Assembly (NCBI GenBank): GCA_933228675.1
Contig: OW121741.1
Span: 132,073,290-132,137,289, forward strand
Direction: 5' to 3'
DNA length: 64,000 nt
DNA from: Stomorhina lunata
Lineage: Eukaryota; Arthropoda; Insecta; Diptera; Rhiniidae
In this document: positions 16,455 to 47,170 of the stretch, piece by piece
Layout of the letters: each line of letters begins with the position of its first letter
Position numbering within the stretch: the stretch's first letter is position 1
Notes under the pieces: model-generated
Told to the model about the DNA's origin: nothing
The model's input: the letters and a program-made list of their open reading frames with translations, nothing else
Database searches by the model: none
Program-made: the position numbers and the translations under genes

Positions 16455-16560
16455 TTTTGCAATTCTCCCACAAAATCAAAAATATAAAACTCTCAATATT
16501 TTCCTTAAAAGGCCTCAAATCAAGAAAGGAAGCTTCACTTGGACTCTCTCCTGACATTTT
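16455..16560 (+). repeat. R4 repeat unit flanking the minisatellite on the left
   Basis: It contains AATATAAAACTCTCAATATT, GGCCTCAAATCAAGAAAGGA and an AAGCTTCACTTGGA segment. This matches units at 19850-20260 on the other side of the 16570-19850 arrays, in the same orientation. Confidence 0.7.
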
Positions 16561-16569
16561 ATAAAAATT

Positions 16570-18900
16570 TTTGTAATTTGAAAAATTATCAGATTTTTTT
16601 TTTTAAATTTCATAATTTTTTTTTTTTAATATTTTATTAAAATTCTCTCTTAAGACTAATTTTATCAAAATATTTCAGTAAGAAAAATTTTTCTACAAGA
16701 AAAATTTTATCAAAATTTTTCTGTAAGAAAAATTTCATCAACATTTTTTATAAGAAAATTTTCATCAAAATTTTTCGATAACAAAAATTTTAATCAAAGT
16801 TTCTCTATAACAAAAATTTTATCTAAATTTTTCTATATTAAAAATTTTAGCAAAACTAAATCAAATTTTTTCTATAAGAAATTTTTTATCAAAATATTTC
16901 AGTAAGAAAAATTTTTCTACAAGAAAAATTTTATCAAAATTTTTCTATAAGAAAAATTTCATCAACATTTTTTTATAAGAAAATTTTCATCAAAATTTTT
17001 CTATAACAAAAATTTTCATCAAAGTTTCTCTATAACAAAAATTGTATCTAAATTTTTCTATATTAAAATTTTTAGCAAAACTAACTCAAATTTTTTCTAT
17101 AAAAAATTTTCATCCAAATATTTTTAGAAGAAAAATTTCATTAACATTTTTCTAAAAATTTCATCAAAATTTATCTTAAAGAAAAATTTAGTTAATTTTT
17201 TTTATAACAAAAATTTCCTCAAAATTTTTCTATAACAAAAATTTTAACAAAAAAAAAAAAAAATTTCCCATAAGAAAAATTAAATCAAATTTTTTCTATA
17301 AAAAAAAAAATTTAAATTTCTCTTTAAGAAAAATTTCAGGAACATTTTTGTTTAAGAATAATTATATCAAAATTTTTTCTTTAAGAAAAATTTTGTCAAA
17401 ATTTTTCTTTGAACAAAATTTCATCAAAAGTTTTGTATAAGAAAAAATTTTTTTGAAGAAATATTTCATAAAATTCTTCTATAAAAATAATTAAAATGTT
17501 TCTTAAAAAAAAAATTTAATAAATTTTTCTTAAAAAAAAAATTTCACTAAAATTTTTCTATAAGAAAAATTTCACTAAAATTTTTCTATAAGAAAAATTC
17601 CATAAAACTATTTTTTTTTAATTTGACCAAAAATTTCATCAACATTTTTCTATAAGTATAATTTCACCTAAATTTTTCTTTAAAGAAAGAAAAATATCAT
17701 ACATTTTTTTTTTAATTTTATCAAAATTTTTCTATAAAAAAAAAATTAATTTAAACTTTTCTTATATGAAAAATCCATCAAAATTTTTCTTTAAGAAAAC
17801 TATAAAAAAATTTTCGTAAAAATTTTTCTATAAGAAAAATTTCATCAAAATATTTATTTGAGAAGAATTTAATCAAAATTTTTCTTTAAGAAAAATTTTA
17901 TACATTTTTTGGCTTTTTATCAATAAATTGATCTGTTACATTAATAAATAAATGTAACAGGTTTGGGATCAAATGCAAATACTCTTCTTTTTGAAAAAAT
18001 TTTCTTTAAGAAAAATTTCATAAACATTTTTCTATAAAAAAAATTCATTTAAATTTCTCTCATATTGAAAATTTCAATAAAATTTTTCTTTAAAAAAATT
18101 TCATCCAAAAAACTTTTATTAAAATTTTTAATCAAAATTTAAAAAAAAATCATTAAAATTTCATCAAAAACTTTTTTTAAAGTTTTTCATCAAAATTTTT
18201 CTAAAAAGAAAAATTTCATCAAAATTTTTCTAAACAGAAAAAAATTTCATCCAAAAAACTTTTATTAAAATTTTTAATCAAAATTTAAAAAAAAATCATT
18301 AAAATTTCATCAAAAACTTTTATTAAAATTTTTCATCAAAATTTTTCTAAAAAGAAAAATTTCATCAAAATTTTTCTAAAAAGAAAAATTTCATTAAAAT
18401 TTGTCTATAAAAAAATTTCATTAAAATTTTTCTTATATGAAAAATTTCATAAAAAATTTTCTTTAAAAAAATTTAATCAAAATTTTTTATAAAAAAGATT
18501 TTATCAAAATTTTTCTATAAGAAAAATTAATCAAAATTTTTCTATAAGAACAATTTCATCCAAATTTTTCTATAAGAAAGATTTCACCAAAAGTTTTTAA
18601 TATTTAAGAAAAATTGCATAAACATTTTTTTTAAGAATAATTTCCAAATTTTTCTACAAAAAAAAATTTCATTTAAATTTTTCTTATATGAAAAATTTCA
18701 TCAAATCTTTTCTTAAAGGAAAATTTCACCAAAATTTTTCTTTAAAAAAAAATTCACTAAAATTTTTCGATAAGAACAATTTCATCAAAATTTTTCTTTA
18801 AAAAAATTTCTTCAATATTTTTCTATGAGAAAAATTTAATTTAAATTTTTCTTATATGCAAATTTCATCAAAATTTTTCCTTAAAAAACATTTTTATTTT
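16570..18900. repeat. AT-rich ~28-bp minisatellite (AAATTTCATCA type)
   Basis: Degenerate units of TTTTTCTATAAGAAAAATTT plus CATCAAAA. It contains local duplications: about 226 bp (16661 versus 16887) and about 136 bp (18110 versus 18245). A small hairpin (CTGTTACATT / AATGTAACAG) interrupts it near 17931-17960. Confidence 0.93.
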
Positions 18901-19850
18901 TAGAAAGAAATTGTTGAAAAATTTCTTATTTTCTGAAAAGAAATTTCTTATTTTTATAGAAAATTTTTCAAAACTTTCTTATTTTTATAGAATTTTTTTT
19001 TTAAGAATTTTTTCAAAAATTTCTTATTTTTCAAAGAAATTTTCAAAAATTCCTTTTTTTAATGAAAATTTTTTAAAAATTTCTTATTTTTATAGGAAAA
19101 TTTTTTAAAAATTTCCGTTGTTTTTTGAAATTTTTCAAAAATTTCTTTTTTTTTAAGAAACTTTTTTAAAAATTTCTTATTATTTTAATAAGAAATTTAA
19201 AAAAAAAATCGTATTTTTATAGGAGATTTTACAAAAATGTTTTATTTTTATAGGAAATTGTTCAAAAACTTCTTATTTTTATAGGAAATTTTTCAAAAAT
19301 TTCTTATTTATATAGAAATTTTCAAAAAGTTTTTATTTATATAGAAATTTTCAAAATTTTTTTATTTTTACAGGAAATTTTTCAAAAATTTCTTATTTTT
19401 ATATTAAAATTTTTTGAAATTTCTTATTTTTATAGGAAATTTTTTAAAAATTTCTTATTTTTATAGGAAAGTTTTCAAAAATTTCTTATTTTTAAAGGAA
19501 AGTTTTCAAAAGTTTCTTATTTTTATAAGAAACTTTTAAAAAATTTCTTATTTTTATAGGAAATTTTAAAAAAATTTCTTATTTTTATAGGACTTTATTC
19601 AAAAGTTTCTTTTTTTACAGGAATTAAAAAAATTATATTTTTATACAAATTTTTTCAAAAACTTCATATTTTTAATGAAAATTTTCAAAAATTTCTTATT
19701 TTTATAGGAAATTTCTAAAAAAATTGTTATTTTGTGGGAAATTTTTTAAAAATTTATAATTTTTTTATGAAATTTTTTAAAAATTTCTTATTTTTTTAGG
19801 AAATTTTTCAAAAATTTCTTCTTTTTATAGAAATTTTAAAAAATTTTAAA
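18900..19850. repeat. AT-rich ~31-bp minisatellite (TTATAGGAAATTTTTC type)
   Basis: Units TTCTTATTTTTATAGGAAAT plus TTTTCAAAAAT. The small open frame at 18911-19108 is a translation of the repeat. Confidence 0.93.
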
Positions 19851-21749: not shown

Positions 21750-24700
21750 CATAGAAATCGGATTAGGAATAGAACTAGGAACTGGATATGAAATAGGACT
21801 GGGAATAGCACCAGGTATAGGAAAAGGAATAGTAAAGGCACTAGGAATAGGACTAGGACCAGGACCAGGACCAGGACCAGGACCAGGACCAGGACCAGGA
21901 CCAGGACCAGGACCAGGACCAGGACCAGGACCAGGACCAGGACCAGGACCAGGACCAGGACTAGGACTAGGAATAGGACTAGGCATAGGACTAGTAATAG
22001 GACTAGGAATAGGACTAGAAATAGGTCTAGGAATAGGACGAGGAATAGGACCAGGAATAGGACCAGGAATAGGACTAGGAATAGGACTAGGAATAGGACT
22101 AGGAATAGGACTAGGAATAGGACTAGGAATAGGACTAGGAATAGGACTAGGAATAGGACTAGGAATAGGAATAGGAATAGGACTAGGAATAGGACCAGGA
22201 ATAGGACTAGGAATAAGACTAGGAATAGGACTAGGAATAGGAGTAGGTCTAGGACTAGGACTAGGGCTAGGACTAGGACTAGGACTAGGACTAGGACTAG
22301 GACTAGGACTAGGACTAGGACTAGGACTAGGACTAGGACTAGGACTAGGACTAGGACTAGGACTAGGACTAGGACTAGGACTAGGACTAGGACTAGGACC
22401 AGGACTAGGACTAGGACTAGGACTAGGACTAGGACTAGGACTAGGACTAGGACTAGGACTAGGATAGGACTAGGACTAGGACTAGGACTAGGACTAGGAC
22501 TAGGACTAGGACTAGAACTAGGACTAGGACTAGGACTAGGACTAGGACTAGGACTAGGACTAGGACTAGGACTAGGACTAGGACTAGGACTAGGACTAGG
22601 ACTAGGACTAGGACTAGGACTAGGACTAGGACTAGGACTAGGACTAGGACTAGGACTAGGACTAGGACTAGGACTAGGACTAGGACTAGGACTAGGACTA
22701 GGACTAGGACTAGGACTAGGACTAGGACTAGGACTAGGACTAGGACTAGGACTAGGACTAGGACTAGGACTAGGACTAGGACTAGGACTAGGACTAGGAC
22801 TAGGACTAGGACTAGGACTAGGACTAGGACTAGGACTAGGACTAGGACTAGGACTAGGACTAGGACTAGGACTAGGACTAGGACTAGGACTAGGACTAGG
22901 ACTAGGACTAGGACTAGGATAGGACTAGGATAGGACTAGGATAGGACTAGGATAGGACTAGGATAGGACTAGGATAGGACTAGGATAGGACTAGGATAGG
23001 ACTAGGATAGGACTAGGATAGGACTAGGATAGGACTAGGATAGGACTAGGATAGGACTAGGATAGGACTAGGATAGGACTAGGATAGGACTAGGATAGGA
23101 CTAGGATAGGACTAGGATAGGACTAGGATAGGACTAGGATAGGACTAGGATAGGACTAGGATAGGACTAGGATAGGACTAGGATAGGACTAGGATAGGAC
23201 TAGGATAGGACTAGGATAGGACTAGGATAGGACTAGGATAGGACTAGGATAGGACTAGGATAGGACTAGGATAGGACTAGGATAGGACTAGGATAGGACT
23301 AGGATAGGACTAGGATAGGACTAGAATAGGACTAGAATAGGACTAGGATAGGACTAGGATAGGACTAGGATAGGACTAGGATAGGACTAGGATAGGACTA
23401 GGATAGGACTAGGATAGGACTAGGATAGGACTAGGATAGGACTAGGATAGGACTAGGATAGGACTAGGATAGGACTAGGATAGGACTAGGATAGGACTAG
23501 GATAGGACTAGGATAGGACTAGGATAGGACTAGGATAGGACTAGGATAGGACTAGGATAGGACTAGGATAGGACTAGGATAGGACTAGGATAGGACTAGG
23601 ATAGGACTAGGATAGGACTAGGATAGGACTAGGATAGGACTAGGATAGGACTAGGACTAGGACTAGGACTAGGACTAGGACTAGGACTAGGACTAGGACT
23701 AGGACTAGGACTAGGACTAGGACTAGGACTAGGACTAGGACTAGGACTAGGACTAGGACTAGGACTAGGACTAGGACTAGGACTAGGACTAGGACTAGGA
23801 CTAGGACTAGGACTAGGACTAGGACTAGGACTAGGACTAGGATAGGACTAGGATAGGACTAGGATAGGACTAGGATAGGACTAGGATAGGACTAGGATAG
23901 GACTAGGATAGGACTAGGATAGGACTAGGATAGGACTAGGATAGGACTAGGATAGGACTAGGATAGGACTAGGATAGGACTAGGATAGGACTAGGATAGG
24001 ACTAGGATAGGACTAGGATAGGACTAGGATAGGACTAGGATAGGACTAGGATAGGACTAGGATAGGACTAGGATAGGACTAGGATAGGACTAGGATAGGA
24101 CTAGGATAGGACTAGGATAGGACTAGGATAGGACTAGGATAGGACTAGGATAGGACTAGAATAGGACTAGAATAGGACTAGGATAGGACTAGGATAGGAC
24201 TAGGATAGGACTAGGATAGGACTAGGATAGGACTAGGATAGGACTAGGATAGGACTAGGACTAGGACTAGGACTAGGACTAGGACTAGGACTAGGACTAG
24301 GACTAGGACTAGGACTAGGACTAGGACTAGGACTAGGACTAGGACTAGGACTAGGACTAGGACTAGGACTAGGATAGGACTAGGATAGGACTAGGATAGG
24401 ACTAGGATAGGACTAGGATAGGACTAGGATAGGACTAGGATAGGACTAGGATAGGACTAGGATAGGACTAGGATAGGACTAGGATAGGACTAGGATAGGA
24501 CTAGGATAGGACTAGGATAGGACTAGGATAGGACTAGGATAGGACTAGGATAGGACTAGGATAGGACTAGGATAGGACTAGGATAGGACTAGGATAGGAC
24601 TAGGATAGGACTAGGATAGGACTAGGATAGGACTAGAATAGGACTAGAATAGGACTAGGATAGGACTAGGATAGGACTAGGATAGGACTAGGATAGGACT

Positions 24701-26895
24701 AGGATAGGACTAGGATAGGACTAGGATAGGACTAGGATAGGACTAGGATAGGACTAGGATAGGACTAGGATAGGACTAGGATAGGACTAGGATAGGACTA
24801 GGATAGGACTAGGATAGGACTAGGATAGGACTAGGATAGGACTAGGATAGGACTAGGATAGGACTAGGATAGGACTAGGATAGGACTAGGATAGGACTAG
24901 GATAGGACTAGGATAGGACTAGGATAGGACTAGGATAGGACTAGGATAGGACTAGGATAGGACTAGGATAGGACTAGGATAGGACTAGGATAGGACTAGG
25001 ATAGGACTAGGATAGGACTAGGATAGGACTAGAATAGGACTAGAATAGGACTAGGATAGGACTAGGATAGGACTAGGATAGGACTAGGATAGGACTAGGA
25101 TAGGACTAGGATAGGACTAGGATAGGACTAGGATAGGACTAGGATAGGACTAGGATAGGACTAGGATAGGACTAGGATAGGACTAGGATAGGACTAGGAT
25201 AGGACTAGGATAGGACTAGGATAGGACTAGGATAGGACTAGGATAGGACTAGGATAGGACTAGGATAGGACTAGGATAGGACTAGGATAGGACTAGGATA
25301 GGACTAGGATAGGACTAGGATAGGACTAGGATAGGACTAGGATAGGACTAGGATAGGACTAGGATAGGACTAGGATAGGACTAGGATAGGACTAGGATAG
25401 GACTAGGATAGGACTAGGATAGGACTAGGATAGGACTAGGATAGGACTAGGATAGGACTAGGATAGGACTAGGATAGGACTAGGATAGGACTAGGATAGG
25501 ACTAGGATAGGACTAGGATAGGACTAGGATAGGACTAGGATAGGACTAGGATAGGACTAGGATAGGACTAGGATAGGACTAGGATAGGACTAGGATAGGA
25601 CTAGGATAGGACTAGGATAGGACTAGGATAGGACTAGGATAGGACTAGGATAGGACTAGGATAGGACTAGGATAGGACTAGGATAGGACTAGGATAGGAC
25701 TAGGATAGGACTAGGATAGGACTAGGATAGGACTAGGATAGGACTAGGATAGGACTAGGATAGGACTAGGATAGGACTAGGATAGGACTAGGATAGGACT
25801 AGGATAGGACTAGGATAGGACTAGGATAGGACTAGGATAGGACTAGGATAGGACTAGGATAGGACTAGGATAGGACTAGGATAGGACTAGGATAGGACTA
25901 GGATAGGACTAGGATAGGACTAGGATAGGACTAGGATAGGACTAGGATAGGACTAGGATAGGACTAGGATAGGACTAGGATAGGACTAGGATAGGACTAG
26001 GATAGGACTAGGATAGGACTAGGATAGGACTAGGATAGGACTAGGATAGGACTAGGATAGGACTAGGATAGGACTAGGATAGGACTAGGATAGGACTAGG
26101 ATAGGACTAGGATAGGACTAGGATAGGACTAGGATAGGACTAGGATAGGACTAGGATAGGACTAGGATAGGACTAGGATAGGACTAGGATAGGACTAGGA
26201 TAGGACTAGGATAGGACTAGGATAGGACTAGGATAGGACTAGGATAGGACTAGGATAGGACTAGGATAGGACTAGGATAGGACTAGGATAGGACTAGGAT
26301 AGGACTAGGATAGGACTAGGATAGGACTAGGATAGGACTAGGATAGGACTAGGATAGGACTAGGATAGGACTAGGATAGGACTAGGATAGGACTAGGATA
26401 GGACTAGGATAGGACTAGGATAGGACTAGGATAGGACTAGGATAGGACTAGGATAGGACTAGGATAGGACTAGGATAGGACTAGGATAGGACTAGGATAG
26501 GACTAGGATAGGACTAGGATAGGACTAGGATAGGACTAGGATAGGACTAGGATAGGACTAGGATAGGACTAGGATAGGACTAGGATAGGACTAGGATAGG
26601 ACTAGGATAGGACTAGGATAGGACTAGGATGGGACTAGGATAGGATTAGGATAGGACTAGGATATAGGATAGGACTAAAAGTAGGACTAAAAGTAGGACT
26701 AGGAGTAGGACAAGGACTAGGAATGGGAATGGGAAAAGGAAAGGGAAACGAATAGGAATGGGAATAGGACTAGGAATAGTACTAGGAGTAGGAATAGAAG
26801 TAGAAATAGGACCAGGAATAGGACCAGGAATAGGACCAGGAATATGACTTGAAATAGGACTAGAAATAGGAATAGAAGAGGACCAGGTATGGGAA
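21750..26895. repeat. 5.1-kb G-rich microsatellite: (GGACTA)n and 11-mer (GGATAGGACTA)n
   Basis: It opens with degenerate AGGAATAGGACT units, then a pure GGACCA block (about 21855-21960) and mixed 12-mers to about 22240. Long GGACTA hexamer blocks follow (about 22250-22915, 23645-23835, 24250-24370), alternating with 11-mer blocks (22916-23645, 23836-24250, 24371-26640). A paired variant CTAGAATAGG marks the 11-mer blocks near 23321, 24156, 24633 and 25029. The Pro-Gly frame on the minus strand (21693-21986) is a translation of the GGACCA block and not a gene. Confidence 0.98.
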
Positions 26896-27835
26896 TAGTA
26901 GCATAGAATTACAAGCAGTTAAAAATCAATGCTAAATATATTGCATTACCTATATCAGCAAATTCAATTGCCCCTCGTTAAAATTATTACAACACCTCCC
27001 CTAACCTCATATTTGATACACAAAGCCGTTTTCTCACACTCACACATATTATTCAAGCGTTTGCTGCACACGCTGACATTTAATTAAATGCGCCTAAAGC
27101 TATGTGTATAATATCCATCATTCTGCTACTAAAATCCACAAGATACACAATATCACACAATGCATACGCATAATACAACAAGTCCTTATGTATGTACTTT
27201 TCTACATTCCTCATATTATAAAGTACATACATAAATATCTATATTTAAATTTACTTACATACATATTTACTAGTAATATAGTAATAATACGTGTACTTTG
27301 AGTGTGTATATTTTTGTGGTTAGTTACATTAATGTTTACTATAGAACGAGTATGATTACACCCCCTAACTAACGGCCACTGAGTGCATTTTGCTAAATAT
27401 AAACATTAACCATCGACCTTTTAAATGTTTGCTGGGCATTTACTTTGCATTAAGTATGTGTGTGTGTTTGTGTTCGTGGCTTATTGTGATTTTCTATTGC
27501 CATTTTCGTTGCGAGAACATAGATTTGAACTTGCAAACATTGGTTTAACGTTGAGTTTCAATTATTTGCATTTTTGTTGGTCGGAGGTAAGTCAAGGCAG
27601 CAAATGCCGTCGGTTATTTTACAGGTTGTTATTGTTGGCAGTTCGTCGTCGTTGATTGTTTATGCAAAAAATTATTAGACAATTGTTACATAAATGCAAT
27701 TGTTTGCCTTTTTATGGCTGAAGGGAGAAAGGGGAATTGGTTTAACAATGATTTCATGTGCATTTAATGATTTTATAGATAATTTAATTTCCTATAGGTA
27801 ATTAAATTATAGAATAGAATGATACTGGAAGTAAC
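26895..27835. other. Unique sequence between microsatellite blocks
   Basis: Mixed-composition DNA that separates the main G-rich array from its decayed outlier. No gene supported; the frames at 27104-27301 and 27425-27655 lack recognisable domains. Confidence 0.5.
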
Positions 27836-31109: not shown

Positions 31110-31229
31110 CAACCTACTCGAATCGGGTTTTTCAACAGTAACGCTACAAAAATACAGTGACAGGGACATATTTCTTGCTGCTCTTTTGACATTTCTCTTC
31201 AGTAAGGTTTGCCATTTCATGATGGAAAG
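31110..31229 (+). pseudogene. mariner M1, 5' part including start codon
   Basis: The segment GGTTTGCCATTTCATGATGG resembles the leader and start of mariner M2 at 62763-62781. It is cut at 31229 by hAT-A and continues after 34736: the ATG at 31222 and the codons after the insertion read as an N-terminus METRYT-like run (MERYTSQQRVEII). The left terminal repeat is not clearly recognisable; a weak match lies near 31063-31085. Confidence 0.65.
31222..31229 (+). repeat. 8-bp target duplication of hAT-A, left copy
   Basis: ATGGAAAG here and at 34729-34736. It fits the hAT consensus nTnnnnAn, and removing one copy with the element restores the mariner reading frame. Confidence 0.92.
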
Positions 31230-31478
31230 CAGTGTGGCCATATCCAAAAATATTTTACAGCTAAATCGGCTTTAAAATAATGCTAGAAAATGATAAACAA
31301 AATTCTATACTGCCAAAAAATAATGCTAAAATTATAATTGTATTATTTTTTGTTACTTTGATTAATATATCTTTATAGATGGCTTATTTTTCATAATTCT
31401 TCCCTATAAGCGCTTATTCCACATTATATTATTGAAACAAACTGATTAAAAAAAGTAACGGAATATGAATTGAACGAC

Positions 31479-31795
31479 ACATATCGTCGTGCGAAAGTTT
31501 ATATGCCCTATACGCCAAAATGCATTTTGAGAAAATCGATCTTGAAATTGTAACTTAATTTTTCTAAAAAATTATACAATAGAATTTTGATATTTTACAC
31601 CATATATTTGGCGTATAGAGCAAAACAGCAGGATATAGAACAAAACAGACACTATTTATCTCAGAAACTAGACGAGATAGCCGAAAACGGATTGCAGATT
31701 TGAAAAATTTAGGGTCGAAAAACTAAAGTGGCATCATTAACTCAAAATGTGTATAATGGCGGATAGAGCACATAAACTCCCGCATGACGATATGT
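31479..31795. mobile_element. 317-bp MITE inside hAT-A
   Basis: Inverted ends of about 50 bp: ACATATCGTCGTGCGAAAGT on the left pairs with the end at 31760-31795 (...CGCATGACGATATGT), including a CTCTATCCGCCA/CCCTATACGCCA block. An AATTGAA occurs near both ends but not flush on the left, so the duplication is unproven. Confidence 0.7.
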
Positions 31796-32387
31796 AATTG
31801 AAGTATACATGTAATTACTAATTTATATACATTTATGTACGAAATTTTGCCATTTGATACCAGTTATTATAGAAATTGCGTATGTAACAAATAAACTAAA
31901 AATTGTCATTATTTTCAGAGCATTTAAGTGATTTTTGTCTCATTTAGTGAGTTTTAACAAAATAGTTTGTATGGGAGCTATGTGCAAATATGGACCGATT
32001 TCAACGAAATTTGATAAAGTGATTTCTGTGTACATTAGAGCGTCTCGACTTATATGGGGAAAAAATAAAGTTCGCCGTACACCATCGAATATAAAGCATT
32101 GCTGTGAGACAGTTTCAAAAAATTTTTTTTTAATTTTTTTCGTTGCACATTGGGGTCGCCAAAATACATTTTTCGTTATATCTTCGGCATTTACAGTCGG
32201 ATCTCGAAGTGTGATATATCGGTGTTTTTGTCTCGAGGAGGCCAACATTTTTCTTTAATAGTCATTATTCTTGGGTGTCCGGTTCTAGTATTTATCTATC
32301 AGACCCCTGTTCCTACCACCCTAATGTACCACCCTAATATCAGAAAATTAAAGCTCTTAAAAAATCGTTAAACTTTTACTAAGGAAG

Positions 32388-32522
32388 TTTTTCGATTTTT
32401 CAAACCGATCTATTATAATAGATCGGTTTGAAAAATCGAAAAATCCCTATGTGCAGCAAAATAAGAAATTCCTTGTTTGTAATTACAAACAAGGAATTTC
32501 TTATTTTGCTGCACATAGGGAT
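32388..32522. repeat. Two abutting perfect palindromes (56 bp and 80 bp)
   Basis: 32388-32443 is a perfect 56-bp palindrome centred at 32415/32416, and 32443-32522 is a perfect 80-bp palindrome centred at 32482/32483. The matching right arm (33664-33735) has the simple, unduplicated sequence, so the left arm has gained about 67 bases as an inverted copy of its own flanks. Confidence 0.95.
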
Positions 32523-33149
32523 CGCCAAAGTACATTTTTCGTTATATCTTCGCCATTTACTGTCGGATCTTAAAGTGTAATATATCGATGTTTTTGTCTA
32601 ACGAAGGCCAATCATTGAGCTTAAATACATTCTTCTACATAGTACCTACCCAAGATATTTTAACTCATACAACAAGAATTATAAACATTTTAAATCTTTT
32701 AATCAATTATGTTTTAAAAAGATCCAAGTTTGCTGTATTTTTGACGGCTCTTAAGTTCTGAAAAAATGTGGCCCATGGGTTGCTCACCAGTGACAGCCAA
32801 GGCAGATTAATGTACTACATGAACAAAACGTTCAGTGTCTGTTTAAAGGCATAGATAAGCTGTGAAAATAATTAAGTTTAGTTTTTTAATCATTGACCTC
32901 AAGTACAATCTTCTAGTACTTTTTTTTGATAATAATCATTGATCTCAGATATCCGTTCTAGTATTTATTTTAAATTGTGAAAAAATATCATATAAAAATT
33001 CACAGTGTAAATACCCAAACAGTCTCTTAGTTTGTCTTGCTATTCGTTTTATCCACGAAATAATTGTTTGAATTTCGTCTGTGTCTGTATAACATTTAAT
33101 CGCGATGTGTTTAATTTAATTATAAACTATTAAAAATTAATTTAAATAA

Positions 33150-33413
33150 ACAACAGCCTCCCGAACTCTCCGCTTTTATTTTATCTGCCATTTTGGTTCT
33201 TGTGAAATCCAACCTCAAGCAATTCCAATAGATGATATATCTTGGGTTCATCAATTGCCGGACGACGTTCAAGAAATGCTTCGTCTGCCCATAGAAAATA
33301 ACGTTTACTTTTTCCACCCGGTCCACAATTTCAGAATTTTTTTGACTGAGCCGCCATGCTTGCAATTCTTAATGCAAGAACTGCTGAAGCATTACAGTTT
33401 TCCAAAGATGTAA
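33150..33413 (+). other. Unrecognised open stretch inside hAT-B (no start codon)
   Basis: Codons from 33150 to the stop at 33411-33413 are open, and the distal two-thirds has protein-like composition (includes IDDISWVHQLPDDVQEML, then a PHE/HIS-rich FFHPVHNF and LQFLMQELLKHY). There is no in-frame ATG near its beginning; an AACAACAG at 33150-33156 could be a splice acceptor. A minus-strand frame (33120-33365) overlaps. I recognise neither. It may be a remnant of a transposon protein or a captured host exon. Confidence 0.35.
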
Positions 33414-34389
33414 TGATGACGAAATACCAGCTAACATAAGGAAAATACTTTCTGTTGATGGTTTTATTTACTAAACTTAATTATTTTCACAGCTTATCTA
33501 TGCCTTTGTATGAGTTAAGATATATTGGGTAGAAGAATGTATTTAAGGTTAATGATTAATATCGCAAAACATTGGCCTTCATTAGACAAAAACATCGATA
33601 TATTACACTTTAAGATCCGACAGTAAATGGCGAAGATATAACTAAAAATGTATTTTGGCGATCCCTATGTGCGGCAAAATAAGAAATTCCTTGTTTGTAA
33701 TAGATCGGTTTGAAAAATCGAAAAACTTCCTTAGTAAAAGTTTAACGATTTTTTAAGAGCTTTAATTTTCTGATATTAGGGTGGTACATTAGGGTGGTAG
33801 GAACAGGGGTCTGATAGATAAATACTAGGACCGGTTACCTGAGAATAATTACTATTAAAGAAAAATGTTGGCCTCTTCGAGACAAAGACATCGATATATC
33901 ACACTTCGAGATCCGACTTTAAATGCCGAAGATATAACGAAAAATGTATTTTGGCGATCCCAATGTGCGACGAAAAAAATTAAAAAAAAATTTTCGAAAC
34001 TGCCTCATAGTAATGCTTTATATTCGATGGTGTACGGCGAACTTTATTTTTTCGAGACGCCCTAGTGTACATAGTCAGTATTTGTTTTAAATTTCATGAA
34101 AATATTCTGCTATTTCTGGAAAAATACAAATTCTGAGACCTAAATAATTGACCGATTTTGACGAATTTTAATAGCCATGGTCCCACGACCAAAATAACTT
34201 TTTGTATCAAAATATCTTTAGAATTACTACCAGTACTTTGATTATAAGGTTTGCATTGGTGTTCAGCTATCCCTCTAGATTGACAGACATCTTTAAATTG
34301 AGAGGAAGTGATTCTAAGTATTTTGGATATAACACTAATAGTTCTATGCGTTACATACAACAGCACTGTATTGTTAAAACTGTGCAAAA

Positions 34390-34728
34390 ATAACGATGTC
34401 TATGGGGCCCTTTATAATGTACTCTTCGGCAGTTGTAGCAAGTTAAATTTTTTTCTGACACATAAACAATGTGATGCCATTTCCATTCAGTTTAGTGACG
34501 GGGTTACAAATTTAAATGTGTAATCAACAAAAAATTGTGGTAGATTTTGAAATTAAGATTATTTATTTGATTAAATAAATATTTTGTATAAAAAAAGAAT
34601 GCTAAAAATGCTAAAAATATAATTGAAAAATGCTAAAAATAATGCTAACTGCAAAATGAAAAATTTGCAGCTAAATTAAAAATAAAAATGCTAAATCTAG
34701 CCGCAAAAATGCCAAAATGGCCACACTG
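34390..34728. other. Right subterminal region of hAT-A
   Basis: It carries several ATGCTAAAA motifs in the orientation opposite to those at 31277-31335, up to the CCACACTG terminus. No coding potential. Confidence 0.75.
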
Positions 34729-35313
34729 ATGGAAAGATATACGAGCCAACAACGAGTAGAAATTATTAAAATTTACTACCGACATTCGGAGCTAAATAGT
34801 GGCCTCAACGTGCAGATGGTGAGGAAAATTATCGAGTGATTCACGAGAAGCAAATGCATCCTCAACGTGTTACTGTGTGGTGTGGTTTTTGGGCTGGAGG
34901 AATCATTGGACCTTTTTTTATGAAAATGTGGCAGGTCAAGCGCAAACAGTCAATGGTGTTCGGTATCGTGAAATAATAACCAGTTTCTTCTTGCCTATAA
35001 TTGAAGAAATGAATGTGGAAGGCCAGAGAAACAATTCAATTGCTACATCAGTCATTTCCCGGTCGTGTTATTACAAGCTTTAAAAGAGGAAATTGGACGC
35101 TGCATTAATGAAAGACCGCAGCATTTATGCAAAAAGGTCATTGAAAATTTCATTTAAATATCGCAGCAAAGACCGGCGGCCATCTGCACGATATCTTGTT
35201 CCATATATAACTTCATTCTATCTACTTTACGATATAATAAAGTTCCACGATTTTTTTTAAATATCTGTGTTTTATTTAAAATTTAAAAATTGCTTTCAAG
35301 TTGGGACACCCTT
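34729..35313 (+). pseudogene. mariner M1 transposase, 3' part, internally deleted
   Basis: After the hAT-A duplication the frame resumes with RYTSQQRVEIIKIYYRHSE. It then jumps, by an internal deletion, to a segment matching the central catalytic region: IHEKQMHPQRVTVWCGFWAG, GGIIGPFF, then VNGVRYREIITSFFLP (about 34840-35010). Frameshifts and stops follow, and the end of the protein is recognisable near 35066-35200. The catalytic acidic residues upstream of the deletion are gone. The right terminal repeat reads TTGGGACACCCTT with TA at 35314-35315. Compare M2 at 62667. Non-functional. Confidence 0.8.
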
Positions 35314-35629: not shown

Positions 35630-35931
35630 TTATGTGAACCGCCGTGGTATAGCAGGTTAGTCATCCGCCTAGCATACCAGAGGCCCAAGTTCGATCCCTG
35701 GCCAGACTCACTTGAAAAAATAAATTTTCAAAAAAGCGGCGGTTCACCTCATAACTCAGCTAGCCACTGGTTATTGAGTATTAGGCTATGTAAAACTTCT
35801 CTAACTAATGCATTTGCCGTTCGGAGCCGGCGTTAAAACGTAGGTCCCTTTCAATGAGTCTAAAAATAGAAACGGATGCAGCTCATTGTCTGAGAGAAGT
35901 ACCCCTTGTTCCAATTGGAATGTTGTCGGGG

Positions 35932-35973: not shown

Positions 35974-37915
35974 CACAGTACGACAGTGGTTGGTATACAT
36001 GAGAAATGTTAACAGAATATGAAAATAGAATAAAGAAATATGTGTCTCGGCGTTTTGCTGTAGTACGTCAGAATTTTAAAAAAATCGTTTTTAAAGATTC
36101 CAAGGACCGCACGATGGGCCGGCTAGAAGAAGTTAAGGCGAATAAATTAATTTTCTTAAATCGTTAAATGTTAACAAAAACCACTCAGTTATAATCACCG
36201 ATTCTTGTGCTATATTATGTCATAAAAAATTAATAACTTTGGTTGTTATCTTAGAAGTACGGCAACGCCAAAGGTAACAAATTTTTCGTTTCGTTTTTTT
36301 TGTCAACACATAGTCTTACAATTTTTCGGGGATTTCGACAACTTATTGAAAGTTAATTTTACATCGCCATACATCGTTGTTTTTCGCACAAAATTTTTTT
36401 AACGAAAATTTTAAATGTATGGAGAAAAATAAAAAATTGCAGACGATTGCATACTTTACAAACCACTATAAAAGTTAGACCATTTAGTGATGTTTAAGAT
36501 TAAAGAAAAAAAATTGAGTCAGCGCGCAACCTAAGGTCCATTTATATTACTTTTCAGAAAAATTACAGAAATTACTTATTTGAAGTTATTTGAAAAATGG
36601 TTTAAATTTAAGCATTTAACCTAGACTGAATATCTTGACTTACTGGAATTAAATGTTTATAATACTAGACGCTCAAAAAGCCAGGATATATATAACCAAT
36701 TTGCAAAAAATTTCATAAAATGAAAAAAATAAACTTTGTGTTCTAAAAGCGCCACAACTCGTTTGAAATTCAAGTGAACAATATCAGTTGATTATCTATC
36801 CTCGTCTTTGTATTACCATTCCTACTTCCGCACCAATTTTATGTGAAATCACATATGTATAATTATTTGTAGTAAAACCATATAAATAAATTTTGGTAAT
36901 TATAGTTCGAAAATATATAGATAATTTATTTTTGTATGGAAGGTGCCACGCCTACTATTTCTATAGCCTCCATTTTTCGCGTGCTTATACACTTTAAATG
37001 TTAAGATGTCCACAGCAAATTTGACTATCCTCGTTAAAATAGTGCTTCAGATATACAATGAAATATTTTTTTATATGGGCGGAGCATTAAGAGCCGGAGA
37101 TGCAATAAAACACGTTGAAAATTTCAGAGAAATCGATGAAATATATTTTTTTATATGGGCGGGGCTACTCCCACTATAAATATCAGAAAAGTTTATAGTC
37201 AGCATTAAGCGCCGGAGATGCAATAAAACACGGTGAAAATTTTAGAAATATCAGCTAAGTATTTATAAAGTTATGAATTTATTCCTGTTAAATATTCATT
37301 TCGGCCCATCGTGGACCGTGGAGGTTCACTTGTAACGTAATACTATTCTAAAAAGTTCTATAAAAATAGAATGGGAGAACCGACTTAAATGCTTGAGCCA
37401 GTTTTAAAAAGGGAATTCAATTTGGATTTGTAGGGGACGCTTTAATTTTCATGTAAAATTAAAAAATATCCAAAAAATGTAATGTAATTCAATGTAAAGT
37501 AAATGTAATGTTAAAATACAAAAATGTAAAAACACAAAAATTTTTTCTAATTGCAGAATTGTATTTTTGATGAATTTCGTACATTTTTTGAATATTTTTT
37601 AGTTTTACATTAAAATTAAAGCGTCCCCTAGCGGAAGATTTGTATAAAAACAAATCCACATTTAATTTCTTTTTCAAAACGGGTTTAAGCATTTAAATGG
37701 GTTCACCCATTCTATCTTTATAGAACTTTTTATAATAGTATTATGTTACAAGTGAACCTCCACGGTCCTTCGAATCTTTAATATCGATTTTCTTAAAATT
37801 CTGACGTGCTACAGCAAAACGCGGGGTCACGTATTTCTTTATTTTAAGCCTATTTTCATATTCTGTTAACATTACTCATGTGTACTCAAAAAAATGTGAT
37901 TTTGTCGTACTGTGT
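35974..37915. mobile_element. 1.94-kb inverted-repeat element, Harbinger-like candidate
   Basis: Ends read CACAGTACGACA and its inverse TCGTACTGTG. The outer arms (35974-36110 and 37778-37915) are inverted copies, sharing GAATATGAAAATAG and CGTTTTGCTGTAG. A second, inner inverted pair (37300-37490 and 37580-37770) shares GTGGAGGTTCACTTGTAA. The 3-bp TTA flanks both ends (35971-35973 and 37916-37919 region), consistent with PIF/Harbinger. Internal direct repeats of about 115 bp carry TATGGGCGG and GCCGGAGATGCAATAAAACA (about 37065-37240). No transposase; class is an inference. Confidence 0.6.
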
Positions 37916-39359: not shown

Positions 39360-41690
39360 TAGTACTTGGAATAAAAATTTCTATCGAAAATTTTTTGTAC
39401 TAAAAATTTTCTATCCTTAATTTTTTGTACTAAAAAATTTCTATAGTCAATTTTTTGTACTAAAACTTTCTAAAGCCAATTTTAAAACTAAAAATTTCTA
39501 TAGTCAATTTTTGTACCCAAAATTTCTATAGCAAATTCTTTGTACTTAAAATGTCTATTGTAGTAGCTTTGTACTAAAAATTTCTTTAGTAAATTTTTTG
39601 TACTAAAAATATCTGAAGTACTTAAAATATTTATAGTAAATTTTTTGTACTTAAAATTTCTATAGTAGAAAATAGTAGAAAATTTTTTATACTAAAAATT
39701 TCTATCGTAAATTTTTTGTACTAAAAATTTCTATTATCAATTTTTTGTACTTAAAATTTCTATAATAAATTTTCTGAACTAAAAATTTCTTTAGTAAATT
39801 TTTTGTACTAAAACTTTCTAAAGCCAATTTTAAAACTAAAAATTTCTATAGTCAATTTTTTGTACTAAAAATTTCTACAGTATTTTGTACTAAAAATATC
39901 TATAGAAAATTTTTTTGCCCTAAAATTTTCAATAGTAAATTTTTTGTACTTAAAATTTCTATAGTAAACTTTTTGTACTAAAAATTTAAATCATAAAGTT
40001 TTTGTACTTAAAACTTCCATCATAAATTTTTGGTACTAAATATTTCTATAGTAAATTTTGTGTACTAAAAATTCTATAATAAATTTTTTGTACTAAAAAT
40101 TTTTTTAGGAAATTTTTTATACTAAAAATTTCTATAGTAAATATTTTGTACTAAAAATTTCTATACTAAATTTTTTGTACTAAAAATTTTTATTGTCAAT
40201 TTTTTCTACTAAAAATTTCTATCGTAAATTTTTTGTACTAAAATTGTCTATATTAAATTTTTTGTACTTAAAATTTCTATTATTAATTTTTTTGCAGTAA
40301 AAATTTCTTTAGAAAATTTTTTATACTAAAAATTTCTATGGTAAATTTTTTGTACTAAAAATTTCTATTATCAATTTTTTGTACTTAAAATTTCTATAAT
40401 AAATTTTTTGAACTAAAATTTCTTTAGTAAATTTTTTGTACTAAAACTTTCTAAAGCCAATTTTAAAACTAAAAATTTCTATAGTCAATTTTTGTACCCA
40501 AAATTTCTATAGCAAATTCTTTGTACTTAAAATGTCTATTGTAGTAGCTTTGTACTAAAAATTTCTTTAGTAAATTTTTTGTACTAAAAATATCTGAAGT
40601 ACTTAAAATATTTATAGTAAATTTTTTGTACTTAAAATTTCTATAGTAGTTCTTTAGAAAATTTTTTATACTAAAAATTTCTATCGTAAATGTTTTGTAC
40701 TAAAAATTTCTATTATCAATTTTTTGTACTTAAAATTTCTATAATAAATTTTCTGAACTAAAAATTTCTTTAGTAAATTTTTTGTACTAAAACTTTCTAA
40801 AGCCAATTTTAAAACTAAAAATTTCTATAGTCAATTTTTTGTACTAAAAATTTCTACAGTATTTTGTACTAAAAATATCTATAGAAAATTTTTTTGCCCT
40901 AAAATTTTCAATAGTAAATTTTTTGTACTTAAAATTTCTATAGTAAACTTTTTGTACTAAAAATTTAAATCATAAAGTTTTTGTACTTAAAACTTCCATC
41001 ATACATTTTTGGTACTAAATATTTCTACAGTAAATTTTGTGTACTAAAAATTCTATAATAAATTTTTTGTACTAAAAATTTTTTTAGGAAATTTTTTATA
41101 CTAGAAATTTCTATAGTAAATATTTTGTACTAAAAATTTCTATACTAAATTTTTTGTACTAAAAATTTTTATTGTCAATTTTTTCTACTAAAAATTTCTA
41201 TCATAAATTTTTTGTACTAAAATTGTCTATAGTAAATTTTTTGTACTTAAAATTTCTATTATTAATTTTTTTGCAGTAAAAATTTCTTTAGAAAATTTTT
41301 TATACTAAAAATTTCTATGGTAAATTTTTTTTCTATGGTCAATTTTTTATACCAAAAATTGTTATAGGTAATCTTTTTACTAAAAATTTTTAAAGACAAT
41401 TTTTTTAACCAAAAATTTCAATAGTAAATTTTTTTGTACCAAAAATTTCTATTGTAAATTTTTTTTACTAAAAATTTCTATAGTCAACTTTTGTACTGAA
41501 ATTTCTATAGCCAATTTTTTGTACTAAAAATTTCTATAGTCAATTTTTTGTACTAAAAATTTCTATACTAAAAATTTCTATAGTATAATTTTTGTACTAA
41601 AAATTTCTTTAGTAAATTGTGTATACTAAAAATTTCTTGTCAGTTTTTTGTACTAAAAATTTTTTTTAGTAGTCGTTTTAATACTACGAC
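39360..41690. repeat. AT-rich 29-bp minisatellite (TTTTTTGTACTAAAAATTTC type) with a 979-bp tandem duplication
   Basis: Units of TTTTTTGTACTAAAAATTTC plus TATAGTAAA. Landmark variants repeat at a constant offset: TAAAACTTTC at 39461/40442, TAAAACTTTC at 39809/40785 and TTTGCAGTAA at 40291/41270 (offset 976-981). Two adjacent blocks of about 0.98 kb are therefore duplicates. Confidence 0.95.
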
Positions 41691-42780
41691 CCAAGTATTT
41701 TGATTTTAAAGTGTAAAATCTTTTTCGTTTCCATCCTTGCCTTATGACAGATACTACTTAGATTACGACAGGCTGGGAAGGCAGGCAAACAGTCAACGAA
41801 CAGCCTGCCACCTTAAAAGTGATTACAAAAGAATGAATATACGATAGGACAAGTAAGTAAATAAGTTATAAATGTGTCTCTAAATGTGTTCAAAACACCC
41901 GTGACAATGTCAAAATAATATATAATTTTCATAATTTCTAATGCATTCACTTACAGATTCATTGCCTTTGCCAAGGATAAACTGTTGTATCTGAAGCAGT
42001 CACTTCCTTGTACGAATTTTATTTTCCTCTTTTAAATCTCCACAAAAAAAAGGTTGATTTCATGAATTTTGTTGTTATTATTTTCACCTTAACACGAGCT
42101 GCGCTTCATACTTCAAACTCCTGTCTCGCAAACACCCTAAAAGTAAATTTGAAACTTACGAACGAACGAAAAAAAAATTATTCAAGAAGATTCAAAAAAA
42201 AAACAAAATTGAATGTCAATAACTTCCGACAGATGTTAAACAGTGGTTGTGTATGTTTTAGTACGAGTTTTCGGTGAATTGCGACAAATCTTTCAAAATT
42301 TTCCTGCGCCAACACAAAAATCATAAAGAAGGAGTTTCTTGTTCTGTTCGTAGTCGCGCCCTCCTACCACCATCATCGTCGTCGTCGACGTCCTCATCAT
42401 TATCATCGCCAAAGCAGTTGTCATTGAAAGATAAGGCTCGAACGCAAGGGAAATTGTTATGCTTTAGATGAAATTAGCGAATAATGAAAAACACATTTTC
42501 TTAGATACGAGTACGAAAACGAGTATAACTAATACTTTTGCGTTCTATTATTCATAAATCCAGACGACCAACACCTTTTCCCAAAAGTTGTGATTATTTA
42601 TGGCAGATGACATATTGTCGGGTAAAAATTATTGGCTTTAAGACAAAGGCAATGTCTTTGGAATTATTAAAGTGGTTATTATTTGAATATGATATGGCAC
42701 GTGCAATTTAAAGGTGCATAAATTTGATTGAAAAAACGAATTTGATATTGGCGGTCAAAGTTCATAGAAATAATTATAGA
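41690..42780. other. Unique sequence containing a possible host exon or promoter
   Basis: 42250-42470 is markedly less AT-rich than the surroundings, with CGACAAATC, GCGCCAAC, and a serine-coding ATCATCGTCGTCG tract. The frame at 42274-42471 has no ATG start. No firm splice sites or domain. I cannot assign a gene. Confidence 0.35.
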
Positions 42781-44390
42781 TTTCTTTTACTTATTTAAGT
42801 AAAAAAATTACAAATTTTTTGTACAGAAAATGTCTATAGTAACTTTTTTGTACTAAAAATTTCTTTAGTAAATTTTTGGTACTAAAAATTTCTATAGCAA
42901 ATTTTTTGTACTAAAAATTTTTATAGTAAATTTTTTGTACTAAAAATTTCTATAGTAAATTTTTTGTACTACAAATTTCTATAGTAAATTTTTTGTACTA
43001 AAAATTTCTATAGTAAAATTCTTGTACTAAGAATTTCTATAGTCTGTTTTCTGTACTAAAAATTTCTTGTACCAAAAATAAATTTTTTGTACTAAAAAAT
43101 CCTATAGTCAGTTAATTGTACAAAAATTTCTATAGTCAGTTTTTTGTAATAATAGTAAATTTTTTGCACAAGCAATTTCTATAGTAAATTTTTTTGTACT
43201 AAAAATTTCTTTAAGTTTTTTATTATAAATTTCTACATTAAATTTTTTGTACTAAAAATTTCTATAGATTTGTTCTAAAAGTTTTTATAGTAAATTTTTT
43301 GTACTAAAAAATTCTATTGTCAATTTTTTATCCTAAAAATTTCTATTATCAATTTCTTGTACTAAAATTTTCTGCAGTAAATTTTTTGTACTAAAAATCT
43401 CTATTGTAAATATTTTGAACTAAAAATTTCTGTAGTCAATTGTTTGTACTAAAAATTTCTATAGTCAATTTTTAGTACTAAAAATTTCTGAGCAAATTTT
43501 TCTTACTAAAAATTTCGCCAGTAAATTGTTTGTACTAAAAATTTCTATAGTCAATTTTTTGTACTAAACATTTCTATAGTCAATATTTTGTACTAAAAAT
43601 TGCTTTAGTAAATTTTTGGTACTAAAATTTTCTATAGTAAATTTTTTTTGGACTAAAAATTTCTATAGTCATTTTTTTGTACTAAAAATTTCTATAAAAA
43701 ATTTTTTGTACTAAAAATTTTTATAGTCAATTTTTTGTACTAAAAATTTCTATAGTAAATTTGTTGTACTAAAAATTTCTATAGTGAATTTTTTGAACCG
43801 AAAATTTCTAAAGTCAATTTTTTGTAATAAAAATTTCTGTAGTCAATTTTTTTTACTTAAAATTTTTATAGTGAATTTTTTGTACTAAAAATTTCTAAAG
43901 TAAATTTTTTTGAGCTAAAAATTTCTTTTGTAAATTTTTTGTACTAAAAATTTTTCTAGTAAATTTTTTGTACTAAAAATGTCTATAGTAATTTTTTGTA
44001 CTAAAAATTTCTATAGTCAATTTTTTGTACTGAAAGTCTTTACAGTCAATTTTTTTGATAAATTTTTGTTGGTCTAAAAATTTCCATAGTAAATTTTTTG
44101 TACTAAAAATGTCCATAGTAAATTTTTGTACTAAAAATTTCTATATTAATTTTTGTACAAAAAACTTCTATAATATTTTTTTTTGTACTAAAAATTTCTA
44201 TTGTCAATTTTTTGTACTAAAGATTTCTATATTAAATTTTTTGTACTAAAATTTTTTTTATTAAATTTTTCGTACTTCAAATTTCTATAGTATATTTTTT
44301 GTACTAAAAATTTCTATAGCAAAAATTTCTTAGAAAATTTTTTTTACTAAAAATTTCAATAGTAAATTTTTTGCAAATTAACTTTTCATA
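42780..44390. repeat. AT-rich 29-bp minisatellite (GTACTAAAAATTTC type)
   Basis: Same unit as at 39360-41690. The open frame at 44055-44249 is a repeat translation. Confidence 0.95.
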
Positions 44391-45990
44391 CGAAAATTTA
44401 CTTTTTATAGGAAATTTTTCGAAAATTTACTATTTATAGGAAATTTTTCGATATTTGATTGTTTGTAAGAAAATTTTTCGATAATTGTTTATATATAGGA
44501 AATTTTTCTAAAATTTACTATTTTTAGGAAATTTTTCGAAAATGACTATTTTTAGGGAATTTTTCGAAAATTGACTATTTATAGGAAATTTTTCAAAACT
44601 TGACTATTTATAGGAAATTTTTCGAAAATTGACTATTTATTGGAAATTTTTCGAAAATTGACTATTTATAGAAAATTTTTAAAAAATTGTCTATTTAAAG
44701 GAAATTTTTCGAAAATTTACTATTTATAGAAAATTTTTCGAAAATTGACTATTTCTAGGAAATTTTTCCAAAATTTGCTTTTTATAAGAAATTTTTCGAA
44801 AATTATTTGTAGGAAATTTTTCGAAAATTGACTATTTATAGGAAATTTTTCGAAAATTGACTATTTATAGGAAATTTTTCGAAAATTTACTTTTTATAGG
44901 AAATTTTTCGAAAATTGACTATTTATAGGAAATTTTTCGAAAATTTACTATTTATAGGAAATTTTTCGAAAATTGACTATTTATAGGAAATTTTTCGAAA
45001 ATTGACTATTTATAGGAAATTTTTCGAAAATTGACTATTTATAGGAAATTTTTCGAAAATTGACTATTTATAGGAAATTTTTCGAAAATTTACTTTTTAT
45101 AGGAAATTTTTCGAAAATTGACTATTTATAGGAAATTTTTCGAAAATTGACTATTTATAGGAAATTTTTCGAAAATTGACTATTTATAGGAAATTTTTCG
45201 AAAATTGACTATTTATAGGAAATTTTTCGAAAATTTACTTTTTATAGGAAATTTTTCGAAAATTGACTATTTATAGGAAATTTTTCGAAAATTTACTATT
45301 TATAGGAAATTTTTCGAAAATTGACTATTTGTAGGAAATTTTTCGAAAATTGACTATTTATAGGAAATTTTTCGAAAATTGACTATTTATAGGAAATTTT
45401 TCGAAAATTGACTATTTATAGGAAATTTTTCGAAAATTGACTATTTATAGGAAATTTTTCGAAAATTGACTATTTATAGGAAATTTTTCGAAAATTGACT
45501 ATTTATAGGAAATTTTTCAAAAATTGACTATTTATAGGAAATTTTTCGAAAATTGACTATTTATAGGAAATTTTTCGAAAATTGACTATTTATAAGAAAT
45601 TTTTCGAAAATTGACTATTTATAGGAAATTTTTCGAAAATTGACTATTTATAAGAAATTTTTCGAAAATTGACTATTTATAGGAAATTTTTCGAAAATTG
45701 ACTATTTATAGGAAATTTTTCGAAAATTGACTATTTATAGGAAATTTTTCGAAAATTGACTGCTTATAGGAAATTTTTCGAAAATTGACTATTATTAGAA
45801 AATTTTTCGATAATTGTTTATTTATTGGAAAATTTTCGAAAATTTACTATTTTTAAAAATTTTTCCGTTATTGTCCTTTTATAGGAAATTTTTCGAACCT
45901 TAACTATTTATAGTAAATTTTTCGAAAATGAATATTTATAGGAAATTTTTCGAAAATTGGCTTTATAGCTAATTTTTCGAAAATTGACTA
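44390..45990. repeat. AT-rich 29-bp minisatellite (GACTATTTATAGG type)
   Basis: Unit GAAAATTGACTATTTATAGG plus AAATTTTTC, nearly perfect from about 44820 to 45780. Confidence 0.97.
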
Positions 45991-47170
45991 TTTATTTAAC
46001 TATAAATTTTTGTACTAAAAATTTCTATATTAATTTTTGTACAAAAAACTTCTATAATTTTTTTGTACTAAAAATTTCTATTGTCAATTTTTTGTACTAA
46101 AGATTTCTATATTAAATTTTTTGTACTAAAATTTTTTTATTAAATTTTTCGTACTTCAAATTTCTATAGTATATTTTTTGTACTAAAAATTTCTATTGTA
46201 AAAATTTCTTAGAAATTTTTTTTTACTAAAAATTTCTATAGTAAATTTTTTGCAAATTAACTTTTCATACGAAAATTTACTTTTTATAGGAAATTTTTCA
46301 AAAATTGACTATTTATACTAAATTTTTCGATATTTGATTGTTTGTAAGAAAATTTTTCGATAATTGTTTTTATATAGGAAATTTTTCTAAAATTTACTAT
46401 TTTTAGGAAATTTTTCGAAAATGACTATTTTTAGGGAATTTTTCGAAAATTGACTATTTATAGGAAATTTTTCAAAAATTGACTATTTATAGGAAATTTT
46501 TCGAAAATTGACTATTTATTGGAAATTTTTCGAAAATTGACTATTTATAGGAAATTTTTAAAAAATTGTCTATTTAAAGGAAATTTTTCGAAAATTGACT
46601 ATTTATAGAAAATTTTTCGAAAATTGACTATTTCTAGGAAATTTTTCCATAATTTGCTTTTTATAAGAAATTTTTCGAAAATTATTTATAGGAAATTTTT
46701 CGAAAATTGACTATTTATAGGAAATTTTTCGAAAATTGACTATTTATAGGAAATTTTTCGAAAATTTACTATTTTTAGGAAATTTTTCAAAAATTGACTA
46801 TTAATAGGAAATTTTTCGAAAATTAACTATTTATAAGAAATTTTTCGAAAATTTACTATTTATAATAAAAATAGTCAATTTATAGGAAATTTTTCGAAAA
46901 TTGAGTTTTTATAGGAAATTTTTCGAAAATTTACTATTGATAGGAAATTTTTCTAAAATTAAGTTTTATACAAAAATTCACTATTTACAGGAAATTTTTC
47001 GAAAATTGACTATTTATTGTAAATTTTTCGAAAATTGAGTTTTTATAGGAAATTTTTCGAAAATTTACTATTTATAGAAAATTTTTTGAAATTTACTATT
47101 TATAGGAAATTTTTCGAAAATTGACTATTTATAGGAAAATTTTCGATAATTAACTATTTATAGGAAATTT
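45990..47170. repeat. Second copy of a compound minisatellite block
   Basis: The GTACTA-type then GACTATTTATAGG-type succession at 44130-45300 is repeated here with an offset of 1,879 bp (unit ACTTTTCATA at 44381 and 46260). The copy has a shorter second array. Confidence 0.93.

What the first reader, a model, noticed from the sequence alone, without database searches (positions are those of the whole stretch)
31110..35313. Four-level transposon nest with base-exact junctions: mariner < hAT-A < Helitron-like < hAT-B
Seen directly: hAT-A (CAGTGTGGCCA ends) splits the mariner start codon region with the 8-bp duplication ATGGAAAG. A Helitron-like copy lies in hAT-A. hAT-B (TAGRGCGTCTCGA ends) splits that copy with the 8-bp duplication GTGTACAT. 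Both duplications fit the hAT pattern nTnnnnAn. The intact Helitron-like copy at 53626-54380 provides the empty site for hAT-B. The order gives a relative timeline of element activity.
Basis: partly seen in the sequence, partly recalled or inferred. Interest (0 to 1): 0.75.

Follow-up and report, generated by a model that had tools for sequence, protein, structure and literature searches.

The report
Nested transposons that moved together
A stack of jumping genes in an insect-like genome turned out to hold one jumping gene inside another that travelled as a single package, so the order of the stack cannot simply be read as the order of events at this spot.

Summary
Both hAT-type insertions are real and base-exact; the four-level timeline is not supported.

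(1) hAT-A 31230-34728 has the 8-bp duplication ATGGAAAG; hAT-B 32036-34064 has GTGTACAT. Other genome copies give uninterrupted sites for both.

(2) The "Helitron-like" layer is not a separate insertion here. The DINE-1-like fragment lacks both ends and lies in 26 of 28 other hAT-A loci fetched: an old passenger of the hAT-A family.

(3) The outer "mariner" is two fused elements: 5' part from one DD41D family (X), 3' part from another (Y), joined near 34811-34818. None of 29 other Y loci carries X sequence.

(4) The package hAT-A[hAT-B] also sits on contig C12 with a different 8-bp duplication (7/8). It differs by 4 substitutions and a 73-bp deletion over 3.4 kb, and homology stops at the hAT-A ends. 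So the package moved as a unit. Which copy, if either, is the donor is open; hAT-B may have entered hAT-A before hAT-A reached this site.

Net: ordinary transposon nesting, with a recently mobile two-element composite.

The parts
31123..31229 (+). 5' end of DD41D element X (terminal repeat, leader, start codons); its last 8 bases are the left target duplication
   Evidence: 37 of 40 other genome matches start at 31121/31122; continuous with 34737 onward in X copies L002-L008
31222..31229 (.). left target duplication ATGGAAAG of hAT-A
31230..34728 (+). hAT-A copy, 3499 bp with hAT-B inside, 1462 bp without; 11-bp terminal repeats CAGTGTGGCCA
   Evidence: 18 loci with both ends resolved including C12, 14 with an 8/8 duplication, 2 with 7/8, 1 with 6/8, 1 with 2/8
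31475..31795 (.). 321-bp hairpin element (arms about 80% complementary) with flanking AATTGAA at 31468-31474 and 31796-31802; present in one hAT-A subfamily
   Evidence: present in 11 of 28 other hAT-A loci, site runs through in 9 of 28, not seen in 8
31840..32035 (-). DINE-1-like fragment, left part; passenger of the hAT-A family
32028..32035 (.). left target duplication GTGTACAT of hAT-B
   Evidence: single copy in L014, L017, L031
32036..34064 (+). hAT-B copy, foldback element with long inverted arms, high copy number
32388..32522 (.). two abutting perfect palindromes (56 and 80 bp) with 70 bases not found in three other hAT-B copies; shared with the C12 composite
34065..34072 (.). right target duplication GTGTACAT of hAT-B
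34073..34366 (-). DINE-1-like fragment, right part
34729..34736 (.). right target duplication ATGGAAAG of hAT-A
34737..34811 (+). rest of the X piece: N-terminal transposase codons, P0040-like
   Evidence: 21 of 22 residues as in P0040; DNA match to L003 and L007 into this stretch; exact end uncertain by a few bases
34818..35313 (+). 3' part of DD41D element Y (P0009-like C-terminal coding, right terminal repeat, then TA); frame-shifted and internally deleted
   Evidence: 121 of 131 residues as in P0009; all 90 other listed genome matches start at or inside 34818

Best explanation
The site is a remnant of two fused DD41D Tc1/mariner-type elements (5' part of X, 3' part of Y). A composite package is inserted in the X start codon. 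The package is a non-autonomous hAT-A copy whose family long ago acquired a piece of a DINE-1-like element and, in one subfamily, a hairpin element. A high-copy foldback hAT-B inserted into that hAT-A copy at GTGTACAT. The hAT-A ends then carried the whole roughly 3.5 kb as one unit, so that two copies are known: here (target ATGGAAAG) and on C12 (ATTACAAT/ATTACAAA). Shown: ends, duplications, empty sites, the second composite, the DINE piece in most other hAT-A copies, the X/Y fusion. Inferred: that a hAT transposase encoded elsewhere moved it, and that a deletion made the X/Y fusion. Open: which copy, if either, is the donor, hence whether hAT-B entered hAT-A here or before arrival.
For: Second composite on C12: 4 substitutions in 3426 aligned bases plus one 73-bp deletion; homology ends within 3 bases of the hAT-A ends; flanking 8-mers match at 7 of 8 and differ from the window's. 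A 131-base query across the hAT-B/hAT-A junction matched in full only at C12 and here, 2 of 40 scored from 1600 first-look candidates. The 70 extra bases of the palindromes are shared by both composites and lacking in three other hAT-B copies. 28 other hAT-A loci: DINE piece in 26, hAT-B in 0. Uninterrupted sites: hAT-B in L014, L017, L031; hAT-A in X copies, exact ATGGAAAG once in L002, L003, L006, L007 of six aligned. hAT-A duplications 8/8 in 14 of 18 loci, T at position 2 in 10 of 15 and A at position 7 in 11 of 15. X/Y: of 147 full-length homologues only P0040 reaches 18 of 22 at the N-terminus and only P0009 reaches 105 of 131 in the C-terminal pieces; 0 of 29 Y loci (27 distinct places) carry X.
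Against: No hAT transposase was found in the nest or the loci fetched, so the machinery is inferred. The C12 duplication is 7/8, not perfect; L017 is 6/8 and L032 2/8. Five of eight other hAT-A copies shown at the hAT-B site have a deletion, change or gain beside it. Two of 28 hAT-A loci (L023, L029) match only the right arm and show no DINE piece. Searches scored only the best 40 candidates each, so a third composite or a second X/Y fusion could be missed.
Confidence: 0.88

Rival explanations
1. Local stacking, then export: hAT-A entered X here, hAT-B entered hAT-A here, and the pair was later copied to C12. This keeps the first reader's order minus the Helitron step, and is compatible with the composite moving as a unit.
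For: The window keeps the 73 bases that C12 lacks and an 8/8 duplication; in hAT-B it has 0 private substitutions against 2 on C12.
Against: None of this fixes direction: at 31550 the window is the derived copy, at 31980 C12 is; a donor and a daughter both go on mutating.
Confidence: 0.4
2. The C12 copy arose by segmental duplication or by gene conversion of an older hAT-A on C12, not by transposition.
For: Two near-identical long stretches can arise so.
Against: Homology stops at both hAT-A ends and the flanks are unrelated; other hAT-A copies compared differ from the window copy by 4.4 to 10.2% (8 loci), so conversion would have had to cover the whole element to its ends.
Confidence: 0.05
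3. One reading: four successive insertions at this locus, mariner, hAT-A, Helitron-like, hAT-B.
For: Homology of 31943-32035 plus 34065-34366 to 53626-54380.
Against: The DINE piece lies in 26 of 28 other hAT-A loci and has no end of its own here.
Confidence: 0.02
4. X/Y is a natural recombinant DD41D family rather than a fusion made at this locus.
For: Both ends are of one superfamily and a chimera could in principle be mobile.
Against: All 90 other listed Y matches start at or inside 34818; 0 of 29 Y loci contain X; the seven X loci fetched fit P0040 better than P0009 downstream.
Confidence: 0.05

Closest known systems
Non-autonomous hAT elements of flies such as Mar (passages of PMC3517528 read)
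   Same: 11-bp terminal repeats beginning CAG, 8-bp duplications, no coding capacity
   Different: Mar has the Buster-type target nnnTAnnn; hAT-A has that in 0 of 15 and leans to nTnnnnAn. hAT-A carries a DINE-1-like piece and is longer
hobo/Hermes-type (Ac family) hAT target choice (passages of PMC2803484 and PMC11226609)
   Same: 8-bp duplications of the pattern nTnnnnAn; the hAT-B duplications read (GTGTACAT, GTACCCAT, CTGTACAT, ATGTACAT) all have T2 and A7
   Different: no transposase found; hAT-B has long inverted arms of a foldback element
DD41D/VS Tc1/mariner elements (passages of PMC8472432)
   Same: 41 residues between the last two catalytic positions in 84 of 87 parsable homologues
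   Different: the copy here is a fusion of two families and lacks the catalytic middle
DINE-1/Helentron-associated elements (passages of PMC4067079)
   Same: copies 53626-54380 and 60605-61245 show subterminal inverted repeats and a terminal stem-loop, read by eye; sequence likeness to Drosophila DINE-1 is recalled, not tested
   Different: the piece inside hAT-A has neither end and travels as hAT-A cargo

Membership tests
hAT (hAT-A) | 8-bp target duplication | tested here: met
   8/8 in 14 of 18 loci with both ends, 7/8 in 2, 6/8 in 1, 2/8 in 1, and 8/8 here
hAT (hAT-A) | short terminal inverted repeats (5-27 bp per PMC3517528) | tested here: met
   11 bp exact, CAGTGTGGCCA
hAT (hAT-A) | target pattern nTnnnnAn (Ac family) | tested here: inconclusive
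   both positions in 7 of 15; T2 10 of 15, A7 11 of 15; Buster pattern 0 of 15
hAT (hAT-A, hAT-B) | moved by a hAT transposase | not testable with these tools
   no such coding region was identified in the nest; the mover is inferred
hAT (hAT-B) | 8-bp target duplication | tested here: met
   8/8 in L073 and L076, 7/8 in L075, the three of five stretches that hold both ends, and 8/8 here
DD41D Tc1/mariner (X and Y) | transposase with 41-residue spacing | tested here: met
   met in homologues, 84 of 87 parsable; the window copy itself lacks that region
DD41D Tc1/mariner (X and Y) | DUF4817 N-terminal domain | tested here: inconclusive
   window stub E = 0.0089, 16.1 bits, below the 22.6 cut-off
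DD41D Tc1/mariner (one single element) | both halves of one family | tested here: not met
DINE-1/Helentron element inserted here | own termini (subterminal repeats, 3' stem-loop) at the boundaries | tested here: not met
   it is a homologous fragment only (79.6% over 387 columns)

The most novel reading that the evidence does not exclude
hAT-A[hAT-B] is a new, recently mobile two-element transposon: one non-autonomous hAT has taken another, a high-copy foldback hAT, as cargo and spreads it, and the double palindrome inside records a hairpin-type break and repair of the cargo before the package moved.
Probability: 0.35. Interest if true: 0.45.

Novelty: new member of a known kind. Interest (0 to 1): 0.3.

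Why it matters
Nesting is often read as a clock. Here genome copies change the reading in three ways: one layer is family cargo, the outer layer is two elements, and the inner pair exists as a unit elsewhere. It is a clean case showing that stack order equals local insertion order only if the layers do not travel together. It also gives a near-identical pair of composites (4 substitutions in 3426 bases) for studying how nested packages spread.

Tried and rejected
Rejected: a separate Helitron layer here; one single mariner; DD34D mariner; Buster-type target choice for hAT-A. I first took 32673-32844 for an insertion in the hAT-B left arm; copies L073, L075 and L076 align through it, so it belongs to the family.

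An early dating argument compared the Y half (d about 0.034, range 0.016-0.062) with the DINE piece (0.239 to 53626-54380). It pointed the same way as the later result, but the X stub allows up to 0.11, so I do not rest on it. The three-way DINE distances using 60605-61245 are distorted by an internal deletion in that copy.

Led nowhere: Rfam and tRNA scans (none); exact patterns in viral contigs and genome contigs: none; the search for related loci with P0009 in viral contigs (12 stretches, none confirmed); protein search with the open frame inside hAT-B (none); a paper search on composites (listing only, nothing useful). The genome search with the hAT-A left arm did not complete.

Full report
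WHAT WAS CHECKED. The window (64 kb, 29% G+C) lies at C2:132073290-132137289 of an unnamed assembly of 728 Mb in 104 contigs. The host is probably an insect, perhaps a fly; this is inference from element types and the arthropod names on homologues, not a test.

OUTER LAYER. Protein homologues have 41 residues between the last two catalytic positions in 84 of 87 parsable cases, as in DD41D/VS (passages of PMC8472432). The N-terminal stub fits P0040 at 21 of 22 residues, but P0040 fits the C-terminal pieces at only 56 of 131. P0009 fits those at 121 of 131 but the stub at only 11 of 22. Of 147 full-length proteins among the 162 collected, none passes both 18 of 22 and 105 of 131. Each search lists only its best 120, so an unlisted exception is possible. 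At DNA level the seven X loci fetched (L002-L008) fit P0040 better than P0009 downstream, at 47 to 88% identity by piece, with frames broken in several. The Y query gave 91 matches from 40 scored of 1082 candidates; all but the window's own start at or inside 34818. Of the 29 Y loci (27 distinct places; L043/L064 and L047/L060 overlap) 0 hold X sequence, and 22 show a P0009 match beginning within its first 40 residues; in one of these, L062, that match is only 39% and P0040 fits it at 45%, probably a different element. So X and Y were fused here, between about 34811 and 34818.

hAT-A SITE. In six X copies aligned through the site, ATGGAAAG stands once in L002, L003, L006 and L007; L005 has one change and L004 lacks four bases there. 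A third DD41D copy in the window, starting at 62779, is also continuous there.

THE HELITRON-LIKE PIECE. It aligns to 53626-54380 over 387 columns at 79.6%, but neither end of that element is found beside it. The right-arm query gave 41 matches from 40 scored of 265 candidates. Of the 28 other loci cut out (L011-L038), 26 hold the DINE piece, 11 the hairpin and 0 hAT-B. The two without DINE, L023 and L029, match only the right arm. All 17 of these loci with both ends resolved contain it. It is therefore family cargo. The hairpin is a later insertion in one subfamily: 9 of 28 loci run through its site, with a diverged single copy of the flanking motif.

hAT-B. The right-arm query gave 43 matches from 40 scored of 1606 candidates, most at 95-96%. 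Of five stretches fetched, three hold both ends, with duplications GTACCCAT (8/8), ATGTACAT (8/8) and CTGTACAT/CTGTGCAT (7/8). Their lengths are 1989, 1980 and 1940 bp, and they differ from the window copy by 2.6 to 3.1%. The empty site TGATTTCTGTGTACATAGTCAGTATTTG is read in L014, L017 and L031; of the other five copies shown, L011, L012 and L019 lack bases beside it, L016 is changed, and L027 has a 5-bp gain.

THE COMPOSITE. L039 (C12:161000-170900) holds hAT-A with hAT-B at 2777-6202. It differs from the window copy by substitutions at 31550, 31980, 32760 and 32900 and lacks 33833-33905. It is flanked by ATTACAAT and ATTACAAA, and the match to the window ends within 3 bases of the hAT-A ends. 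A 131-base query over the hAT-B/hAT-A junction matched in full only on C12 and here, 2 of 40 scored. At 31550 the window is derived, at 31980 C12 is. In hAT-B, 21 of 1834 gap-free columns are shared by window and C12 against three other copies, 0 are private to the window and 2 to C12. Most of the divergence of this hAT-B from its relatives thus predates the copying of the package; how much of it arose inside hAT-A is not known. Direction cannot be told from these data.

PALINDROME. At 32388-32522 the hAT-B left arm holds two abutting perfect palindromes. They add 70 bases that are missing from L073, L075 and L076 but present on C12. The inverted piece carries the C-to-T change seen in the window and C12 but not in those three copies, so it was made from this copy after that change and before the package was copied. 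Hairpin-type break repair or a template switch would do it (inference). PMC2803484 (passages) says that hAT excision leaves hairpins on the donor ends.

VERDICT. Partly confirmed and reinterpreted. It is ordinary in kind, and useful as a worked case of how a nest can mislead as a clock.

Noticed in passing
window 62779-63820: A third DD41D element with a nearly full transposase reading (two frames, one internal gap) and matching ends near 62660 and 63930 by eye; it also serves as an empty site for hAT-A.
   Followed up: partly
window 32388-32522: Two abutting perfect palindromes in hAT-B, overlapping by TTA at the join, shared with C12 and lacking in three other copies: a possible hairpin-repair or template-switch scar.
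   Followed up: partly
window 36006-37878: Element-like stretch with long inverted ends (TGTTAACAGAATATGAAAA and complement); nature not determined.
   Followed up: no
window 35641-35720: Sequence resembling a tRNA-derived SINE (B-box-like GTTCGATCCC), seen by eye; ARAGORN finds no tRNA.
   Followed up: no
window 48623-51028: Open frame of 801 codons that reads like a LINE-type reverse transcriptase, judged by eye only.
   Followed up: no
window 21752-26898: About 5 kb of TAGGAC/TAGGAT-type tandem repeat; several other arrays at 1-5873, 14310-19846, 39372-46960 and 57173-60035.
   Followed up: no
L035, L036, L038: hAT-A subfamily of about 1.62 kb in which further sequence of some 0.8 kb lies between the DINE piece and the right arm.
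   Followed up: no
L063:415-842: A short hAT-B relative at about 86% lying at the left end of a Y element.
   Followed up: no
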